Below are positions 12,852 to 13,330 of a stretch of 45,229 bases of DNA, in pieces. Position 1 is the stretch's first letter. Each line of letters starts with the position of its first letter. Where the stretch lies: assembly GCA_017621975.1 (NCBI GenBank), contig JAGARW010000120.1:1-45229 (forward strand), written 5' to 3'. A program made the position numbers and the translations under genes. The DNA comes from Lachnospiraceae bacterium. Its GTDB lineage: Bacteria > Bacillota > Clostridia > Lachnospirales > Lachnospiraceae. Below the pieces are notes generated by a model. The model made no database searches, had not been told where the DNA came from, and saw only the letters and a list, made by a program, of their open reading frames with translations.

Positions 12852-12861
12852 GATGCATATA

Positions 12862-12900
12862 AAAACGGTATTCTCAAACAGGATACCGTTTTTTATTTTT
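12862..12900 (+). terminator. Intrinsic terminator
   Basis: AACGGTAT (12864-12871) pairs with ATACCGTT (12883-12890), 11-nt loop, followed by a T-rich tail TTTTATTTTTT. It begins 10 nt after the stop. Confidence 0.85.
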
Positions 12901-12903
12901 TAG

Positions 12904-13212
12904 GATTCGGGTGTCAAAAGGTTTTATCGAAAACTGGTATTGTCAAATTGCACAATATATTTTATTGACTGTGCCTGCGCAGGATATTAGACTTTCTTAG
13001 TGTTCCGCCTCCATGCAGCAATTTTCGGACACGATGTCCGAAAAAGGCGAAGCTGAGCCAAGGACGGCGAATCTTCGCCGCTTGCGTCAGATTGTTTCAG
13101 ACCATTGCCGGAACGCTTAGAAAGTCTTATATCCGCAGCCCGGAACAGGAAATAAAATTTTTGTACAATTTGACTAGGCATTGCAAAAATAAAACCTTTT
13201 GACACCCGAATC
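12904..13212. repeat. 309-bp nearly fully palindromic element (MITE-like or large folded RNA)
   Basis: Outer arms 12904-12927 and 13189-13212 are perfect 24-bp inverted repeats beginning GATTCGGGTGTCAAAAGG. Inside, 12942-12955 pairs with 13161-13174 (one mismatch), 12960-12966 with 13151-13157, and 12982-13007 with 13109-13134 (26 positions, two mismatches and one G-T). The centre holds three more hairpins: one around TTTTCGGACA/TGTCCGAAAA, one GGCGAA/TTCGCC, and the palindrome CCTGCGCAGG in the left arm. No clear target-site duplication is seen and there is no transposase. The 72-codon open frame on the minus strand within it looks incidental. It fits a non-autonomous mobile element or a structured RNA. 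Confidence 0.8.
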
Positions 13213-13330
13213 TTTATAAAAAATACTCATCCATATTTTATATAGTTCGTTTTGTGCATTATCACGCATTTTTTTTGTTTAATTTGTTTTTTTCTCAGAA
13301 CTGTCTGAAAACTTTTTTGAAAATTAGGAA

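What the first reader, a model, noticed from the sequence alone, without database searches (positions are those of the whole stretch)
12904..13212. 309-bp nested palindrome without coding content
Nearly every segment of the left half has a complement in the right half, with a perfect 24-bp end pair and an inner 26-position pair that tolerates only two mismatches and one wobble. Three further hairpins occupy the centre. It sits exactly between a terminator and a promoter, as expected for either a MITE or an independently folding RNA.
Basis: seen in the sequence. Interest (0 to 1): 0.7.

Follow-up and report, generated by a model that had tools for sequence, protein, structure and literature searches.

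The report
Mobile DNA hairpin carrying conserved RNA
The palindrome is one of some fifty copies in this bacterium of a small jumping DNA element whose centre is a known but unexplained RNA, TwoAYGGAY, so an orphan RNA family turns out to travel inside mobile hairpins.

Summary
Observation confirmed: window 12904-13212 is a 309-bp nested palindrome (fold z about -14 on both strands), non-coding, 10 bp after a terminator stem. It is not 'MITE or RNA' but both. The genome holds 55 matches to Rfam TwoAYGGAY (RF01731); this copy scores 121.7 bits. Its ends GATTCGGG..CCCGAATC also bound core-less derivatives, and exact 7-bp target duplications flank 8 of 36 full own copies (cross-pairs 11 of 1260) and 16 of 47 elements found elsewhere through the end sequence (14 of 2162). 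All 17 elements of 295-315 bp given to Rfam there (of 23) carry TwoAYGGAY. The core behaves as RNA (G-U 146, A-C 51); the outer arms differ between copies yet pair within each, with nearly symmetric mismatches, pointing to DNA-level arm copying. Loops often keep GGA, as CsrA sites do; all 24 RNA-bearing genera contain CsrA (78 of 223 sampled), but flagellin tracks equally well. No transposase or exact empty site was found. No paper found describes TwoAYGGAY as mobile.

The parts
12904..13212 (+). whole element: non-autonomous mobile palindrome (MITE), 309 bp; + is the strand of the RNA core
   Evidence: 40 places scored by blastn in the own genome (40 of 106 candidates were scored, so a lower bound), many ending exactly at positions 1 and 309
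12904..12927 (+). left terminal inverted repeat, GATTCGGGTGTCAAAAGGTTTTAT
   Evidence: same ends on core-less derivatives
13189..13212 (-). right terminal inverted repeat
12942..12962 (+). outer arm, left half (pairs with 13154-13174); variable between copies, complementary within a copy
13154..13174 (+). outer arm, right half
12975..13141 (+). TwoAYGGAY RNA core (Rfam RF01731), full-length match, 121.7 bits against a gathering score of 43
12982..13007 (+). basal helix of the RNA core, 5' side (pairs with 13109-13134)
13109..13134 (+). basal helix of the RNA core, 3' side
13022..13044 (+). core hairpin 1; loop region CACGAUG, without GGA
   Evidence: the same loop is common among own-genome copies
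13046..13079 (+). core hairpin 2; loop CAAGGACG with GGA at 13062-13064 (CsrA-like)
12861..12898 (+). intrinsic terminator of the upstream gene; preferred kind of neighbour of the insertions
   Evidence: 15 of 35 full own copies abut a terminator against 3 of 136 random intergenic points

Best explanation
A non-autonomous DNA transposable element (MITE) whose cargo is a conserved structured RNA. SHOWN: many dispersed copies with common inverted ends, 7-bp target duplications, a preference for intrinsic terminators, intergenic positions, and shortened derivatives that kept the ends, lost the RNA hairpins and still carry duplications. So a transposase that reads the ends moved them (the enzyme itself was not found). 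SHOWN: the middle is TwoAYGGAY RNA. INDICATED: the core is kept as an RNA on one strand (compensatory changes, G-U tolerated over A-C, conserved loops), while the outer arms are rewritten copy by copy and kept complementary in a nearly strand-symmetric way. INFERRED: the arms correct each other at DNA level, by template switching at the palindrome. INFERRED, less sure: when transcribed, the hairpin loops with GGA bind CsrA (or a protein like it), so each insertion adds a decoy site or puts a neighbouring transcript under CsrA. Many own-genome copies lost GGA in hairpin 1 and keep one site, so the recent burst would be weak decoys.
For: Copies. Exact 7-bp direct repeat at the fixed boundary: 8 of 36 own copies vs 11 of 1260 cross-pairs, other lengths 0-2 of 36; second set, found through the 18-base end alone in other records: 16 of 47 vs 14 of 2162, with 0 or 1 of 47 at 4-6 and 8-10 bp (two of the 47, L245 and L248, have the same flanks and are probably one site in two contigs, which would make it 15 of 46); elements under 200 bp, too short for the core, 6 of 20, those of 290-320 bp 8 of 23. 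17 of 17 elements of 295-315 bp with these ends carry RF01731, the one 244-bp element does not (17 of 23 such elements were given). Terminators 15 of 35 vs 3 of 136. No copy spanned by a predicted gene in 54 own and 51 foreign copies (own gene finder). Covariation on 20 copies of G001+G006: 51 of 68 pairs change on both sides, 257 such cells vs 77 +- 8 in shuffles, slid controls 46-74. G-U vs A-C: core 146:51, outer arms 140:104 by consensus fold, Fisher p 3e-4; by local alignment that treats both alike, 45-nt outer arms 123:118, basal helix 79:34. Own left arm pairs best with own right arm in 17 of 17, 4 of 4, 10 of 10, 8 of 10, 17 of 22 and 20 of 51 fetched copies of six genomes. CsrA: 9 of 9 RNA-bearing relatives (43 of 61 have a CsrA match); 31 of 36 in the class sample vs 94 of 355; 24 of 24 genera.
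Against: The window copy itself has no exact target duplication (TTTTTAG / TTTATAA, 5 of 7). No base-exact empty site. No autonomous partner: none beside 14 solo ends, some imperfect, no ISL3 or IS256-type transposase in the own draft genome, one IS4-type frame with an in-frame stop and one fragment, neither with these ends; other transposase families were not searched, and the assembly is 85% complete. CsrA cannot be separated from flagella: all 125 CsrA-positive genomes also have flagellin, 33 of 36 RNA-bearing genomes have flagellin, and within flagellin-positive genomes 31 of 125 with and 2 of 17 without CsrA carry the RNA (p 0.36). Five RNA-bearing genomes gave no CsrA hit, two of them 95% and 98% complete. 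RNA strand is random to neighbour genes, which speaks against a fixed place in a transcript. Window hairpin 1 has no GGA. G-U/A-C cells are not independent; the outer arms show a slight G-U excess by one method (p 0.012), and hairpin stems counted once each give only 14:6 (p 0.058). No expression data.
Confidence: 0.75

Rival explanations
1. A pure MITE: DNA only. The whole palindrome, core included, is kept paired by arm-to-arm template switching, and Rfam took a repeated DNA palindrome for an RNA.
For: Outer arms show strand-symmetric mismatches (123 G-U vs 118 A-C); orientation is random to genes; derivatives too short for the core have duplications as often as full ones; template switching is documented as a maker and mender of hairpins (PMC8794818, abstract and outline seen).
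Against: The core has a clear G-U excess (146:51), invariant positions cluster in the loops and the basal motif while many stem positions vary, and the same core sits between unrelated arms in the copies I read from nine families and between different ends in G005.
Confidence: 0.2
2. Dispersed genes for a CsrA-binding small RNA (CsrB/RsmY-like sponge) that are not mobile; the repeats at the ends are part of the RNA.
For: Conserved GGA-type loops, strong covariation, 24 of 24 genera with CsrA, earlier motif-based proposal (PMC4333381, passages read).
Against: 7-bp duplications, core-less derivatives with the same ends, copy number from 0 to 55 among ten species of one genus.
Confidence: 0.12
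3. A cis-regulatory leader or 3'-end element of the adjacent genes (the Rfam type label is Cis-reg).
For: In the window both neighbours run on the RNA strand; nine of the ten neighbouring pairs under 1 kb that I found are divergent, as leaders between divergent genes would be.
Against: Downstream gene on the RNA strand in 24 of 53 own and 21 of 50 foreign copies with a call, upstream gene in 24 of 49 and 25 of 49: no preference.
Confidence: 0.08
4. A one-off inverted duplication without function.
For: None beyond the palindrome itself.
Against: 55 RF01731 matches in the genome and matches in 36 of 391 class genomes.
Confidence: 0

Closest known systems
Rfam RF01731 TwoAYGGAY RNA (first listed in PMC2864571, 2010)
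   Same: Full-length match over 168 of 168 model positions, 121.7 bits; same two hairpins and basal helix.
   Different: The model ends where the long variable arms begin; the 2010 table (passage read) rates it as probably an RNA and probably not cis-regulatory, from human gut, gamma-Proteobacteria and Clostridiales. None of the passages I saw calls it repeated or mobile. The window copy lacks the two name-giving loops in strict form. A 2025 preprint (passages) notes that its two hairpins differ in stability, as they do here.
Bacterial MITEs and intergenic palindromic repeats such as ERIC/RU (PMC2759123, start of abstract seen; the rest recalled)
   Same: Short, palindromic, dispersed between genes, MITE-like.
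   Different: Carries a curated RNA family as core, arms change sequence from copy to copy while staying paired, often sits beside terminators.
CsrB / RsmY CsrA-sequestering small RNAs (named in passages of PMC4333381 and PMC4383904)
   Same: GGA in hairpin loops, sites in pairs in many relatives, occurs in genomes with CsrA.
   Different: Many mobile copies instead of one or few genes, about two sites per copy at most in the usual layout, no proof of expression or binding.
Template-switch evolution of RNA hairpins (PMC8794818, abstract and outline)
   Same: Double-sided changes in stems.
   Different: Here seen in parallel in many copies of one repeat, with nearly strand-symmetric arms next to a strand-biased core.

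Membership tests
Rfam RF01731 TwoAYGGAY | score over the curated gathering threshold, full length | tested here: met
   121.7 vs 43 bits, positions 1-168
Rfam RF01731 TwoAYGGAY | consensus secondary structure with covariation | tested here: met
   20 copies of two congeners, 51 of 68 pairs with changes on both sides, 0 of 500 shuffles as high
Rfam RF01731 TwoAYGGAY | two AYGGAY terminal loops | tested here: not met
   window loops are ACGAU and AAGGAC; relatives such as G013 have two NGGA loops. Membership rests on the covariance model; the strict name-giving loops are lost in this copy
MITE | short, non-coding, terminal inverted repeats | tested here: met
MITE | many dispersed copies with the same ends | tested here: met
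MITE | target-site duplication of fixed length | tested here: met
   7 bp, exact in 8 of 36 and 16 of 47; the window copy itself 5 of 7 positions
MITE | related autonomous element with the same ends | tested here: inconclusive
   none found; three transposase families searched in a draft genome
CsrA-sequestering sRNA | CsrA encoded in the genome | tested here: met
   G000:C160:11045-11203, E 3.7e-24
CsrA-sequestering sRNA | several GGA hairpin loops | tested here: inconclusive
   one in the window copy; a strict hairpin count over 149 copies gave 0 in 57, 1 in 35, 2 in 52, 3 in 5; 49 of the 57 are own-genome copies, whose hairpin 2 has only three closing pairs and is missed by the five-pair rule (compare)
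CsrA-sequestering sRNA | expressed and binds CsrA | not testable with these tools
   needs RNA-seq and a binding assay
Cis-regulatory leader | fixed orientation to a downstream gene | tested here: not met
   24 same, 29 opposite in the own genome; 21 and 29 elsewhere

The most novel reading that the evidence does not exclude
A class of selfish DNA hairpins across Clostridia that carries CsrA decoys: a regulator-binding RNA is the constant part, exchanged between different transposon ends and DNA arms, so that bursts of transposition retune the host's CsrA (motility and carbon) network, while the arms evolve in concert by palindrome-templated copying.
Probability: 0.25. Interest if true: 0.85.

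Novelty: new variant of a known kind. Interest (0 to 1): 0.62.

Why it matters
TwoAYGGAY has been listed since 2010, and in the papers I saw its function is still open. Seeing that it travels as the core of MITEs that favour terminators, with up to dozens of copies and patchy presence between sister species, changes what experiments make sense (decoy or cargo instead of a single riboregulator). It also gives a natural test bed for an open question in RNA evolution: how much stem covariation is selection on RNA and how much is DNA template switching. Here a strand-biased core and nearly strand-symmetric arms lie side by side in the same molecules, over a hundred times. It is a warning that covariation alone does not prove an RNA in palindromic repeats.

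Tried and rejected
Single-copy or one-off duplication: rejected. ISL3-type element (my first guess from the end sequence, from memory): no such transposase; IS256-type: none; IS4-type: one frame with a stop and one fragment, without these ends. Autonomous partner beside solo ends: 14 loci looked at, no element with a transposase between two ends seen by eye in the translated frames; these frames were not searched against families. Base-exact empty site: the gene pair is syntenic in G007 without an element, but the intergenic DNA is not alignable. Finding outer boundaries by plain folding of flanks gave random outer pairs and was dropped; boundaries were set by similarity. Cis-regulatory leader: no orientation bias. 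CsrA-specific link: looked strong until the flagellin control, now stated as not separable. The strict hairpin count for GGA loops undercounts hairpin 2 of the own family; both counts are reported. An nhmmer search with a model of own cores found none of the 20 fetched G013 and G031 copies; they were oriented from the Infernal strands. Literature search for MITEs at terminators found nothing.

Rows dropped or partial: 54 of the 55 own RF01731 matches went into the copy set (the one cut at a contig end, C180, was left out); one search used 51 of the 54, because the arms of three run off the contig; one search kept 44 of 51 own copies (over 90% identical ones dropped) and did not include G008, G017 and G032. 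Foreign copies are the fetched ones: G001 17 of 17, G005 22 of at least 38, G006 4 of 8, G013 10 of 20, G031 10 of 18, G017 4 of 7, G008 2 of 2, G032 2 of 2. One search used 35 copies with 100-bp flanks. Own-genome copies ignore small predicted frames lying wholly inside an element. The handle lists were copied by hand; the neighbour pairs were read by eye, whose lists are capped (38 and 7 scored per genome).

Papers: PMC2864571, PMC4333381, PMC7657543, PMC11701678, PMC4383904, PMC11661157, PMC7682815: passages only; PMC8794818: abstract and outline; PMC2759123: start of abstract in a listing. That TwoAYGGAY as a mobile element is not in print rests (open-licence PMC papers only; of the 7 papers counted, 5 were listed, and I saw passages of those 5).

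Mended: 'twelve families' for unrelated arms became nine (those whose sequences I read), the possible duplicate site L245/L248 is named, and PMC11661157 and PMC7682815 were opened.

Full report
WHAT IS THERE. The 309 bases 12904-13212 form a nested palindrome on both strands (-139.8 and -140.8 kcal/mol, shuffles about -73) with perfect 24-bp ends and two inner arm pairs. My gene finder puts no gene on it. Upstream ends an ORF of up to 237 aa without a Pfam match, with a terminator (12861-12898); downstream starts a cytidylate-kinase-like gene. Rfam's TwoAYGGAY model fits 12975-13141 on the + strand from first to last position, 121.7 bits against a threshold of 43.

IT IS A REPEAT. The draft genome (2.68 Mb, 196 contigs, 85% complete) holds 55 RF01731 matches, all over threshold. 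blastn with the element lists 40 places in one orientation (only 40 of 106 candidates were scored), the best full-length ones 90-96% identical. Several copies lie at contig ends, as repeats do in draft assemblies. In a class-wide sample 36 of 391 genomes match at E 0.001, 27 over the curated cut-off, in 24 of 223 genera and 12 families.

IT MOVES, OR DID. Own copies end at the same bases, GATTCGGGTGTCAAAAGG..CCTTTTGACACCCGAATC. Of 36 copies with both ends, 8 have an exact 7-bp direct repeat at the boundary against 11 of 1260 mismatched left/right pairs; exact repeats of 4, 5, 6, 8, 9 and 10 bp occur in 0-2 of 36. Examples are L004 CTATGAA and L009 CTCAGAG; the window copy has a decayed one (5 of 7). 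The end sequence also bounds eight elements of 62, 68, 101 and 150-161 bp that lack the RNA hairpins; by eye four of these (L110, L112, L115, L117) have an exact 7-bp repeat. In 47 cases both ends lie 38-375 bp apart, 23 of them at 295-315 bp. Sixteen of 47 have an exact 7-bp duplication against 14 of 2162 cross-pairs, and no other length peaks; L245 and L248 share flanks and may be one site. Seventeen of 17 elements of 295-315 bp given to Rfam contain TwoAYGGAY, a 244-bp one does not. Elements too short for the core and full ones have duplications about equally often (6 of 20, 8 of 23), so the ends seem to suffice for movement. I therefore call it a MITE. The enzyme is missing.

WHERE IT LANDS. 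No copy is spanned by a predicted gene: 0 of 54 own, 0 of 51 from other genomes (home-made gene finder). Fifteen of 35 full own copies abut an intrinsic terminator, 8 at the left and 7 at the right end, against 3 of 136 random intergenic points of the same loci. The RNA strand has no preferred direction relative to upstream or downstream genes.

CORE AND ARMS BEHAVE DIFFERENTLY. In relatives the arms outside the Rfam model differ widely between copies yet pair within the copy. Mean duplex energies of own left with own right arm are -47 to -78 kcal/mol, cross-pairs -19 to -46. In G001, G006 and G031 every fetched left arm (17, 4, 10) pairs best with its own right arm, in G013 8 of 10, in G005 17 of 22, and in the own genome with its near-identical copies 20 of 51. 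The arms reach about 40-50 nt beyond the model in G013 and G031, 70-90 in the own genome, up to about 130 in G005. On 20 copies from two congeners the predicted structure has 68 pairs, 51 with changes on both sides; 257 double-changed cells against 77 in shuffles and 46-74 in slid controls. Such covariation would normally be taken as proof of RNA. But a wobble on one strand is an A-C clash on the other, so RNA selection should favour G-U over A-C on the RNA strand and DNA-level upkeep should not. Outer 45-nt arms: 123 G-U, 118 A-C over 124 copies by an alignment that treats both alike (75-nt arms 262:238, p 0.15); basal helix of the core: 79 and 34. By consensus fold on five genome sets: outer 140:104 (p 0.012), core 146:51, difference p 3e-4. 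Hairpin stems: 22:6, or 14:6 counting each stem once (p 0.058). Cells are not independent, so these are indications. My reading: the core is kept as RNA; the arms are kept complementary mainly at DNA level, most simply by template switching at the palindrome, a mechanism proposed for RNA stems (PMC8794818, abstract). This part is inference.

WHAT THE CORE MAY DO. The loops are among the most constant parts. In alignment A1 the second-loop GGA is in all 20 copies. Across genomes loops often read CANGGAUG, or in hairpin 1 of several genera CACGAUG without GGA. The RMfam paper saw CsrA-site matches in TwoAYGGAY and proposed CsrA-binding sRNAs in Clostridia (PMC4333381, passages). I tested co-occurrence: CsrA is in 9 of 9 RNA-bearing relatives (43 of 61 overall, one of these under the curated cut-off) and in 31 of 36 RNA-bearing class genomes against 94 of 355 others. 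The five without a hit (G236, G277, G316, G333, G377; 84, 80, 88, 95 and 98% complete) belong to genera in which other sampled species have CsrA, so 24 of 24 RNA-bearing genera are CsrA genera, 78 of 223 being so overall. The control weakens this: flagellin is found in 142 of the same genomes, including every CsrA-positive one, and in 33 of 36 RNA-bearing ones; inside the flagellin set CsrA makes no significant difference (31 of 125 vs 2 of 17). The data fit a CsrA ligand but equally any motility-linked cause. Sense and antisense insertions are equally common, so if the RNA acts it needs a promoter of its own or read-through; the scan shows only one weak promoter-like match inside on the + strand (12965-12993, 9 of 12) and one that starts in the right end (13199-13227, 10 of 12), about as many as shuffles give.

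VERDICT. The palindrome is a MITE that carries TwoAYGGAY RNA; mobility and the RNA-family core are shown, the two modes of arm and core upkeep are indicated, CsrA binding is a hypothesis. A second set of ends in G005 (392-396 bp elements, both ends found in 6 of 22 copies, with 10-12 bp direct repeats visible by eye in two of them) suggests that the core has been carried by more than one kind of transposon end.

Noticed in passing
G000 C64 and C85, G001 C18, G005 C53, C22 and C65, G017 C47 and C33, G236 C47, G279 C1: Neighbouring copies under 1 kb apart are divergent (5' ends facing) in 9 of the 10 pairs I found in the capped listings; one is tandem, none convergent (chance about 3e-5 if orientations were random). 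Unexplained.
   Followed up: partly
L107, L109-L112, L114, L115, L117: Internal-deletion derivatives of 62 to 161 bp share the ends but lack the RNA hairpins; L107 keeps part of one side of the basal helix.
   Followed up: partly
L142, L144, L150, L153, L155, L157 (G005): A second end type (CGACAAACGCATGAATGAAC..) surrounds the same RNA core, with possible 10-12 bp target repeats in L142 and L144.
   Followed up: partly
own-genome copies, G017, G032, some of G031, L212, L215: A core hairpin repeatedly shows the loop CACGAUG instead of CANGGAUG, i.e. GGA shortened by one base, in several genera, with the stem intact.
   Followed up: no
L236, L271, L290, L294, L300: Solo copies of the 18-base end lie inside contigs without a second end nearby, some a few dozen bases before an ordinary gene.
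   Followed up: no
L339 (G000:C17:1350-2114): An IS4-type transposase frame with one in-frame TAG; no ends like those of the element nearby.
   Followed up: no
L239, L246, L267, L285: Records labelled Muribaculum, Muribaculaceae or Gastranaerophilales carry the end sequence, L246 the whole element; probably contigs binned into the wrong genome.
   Followed up: no
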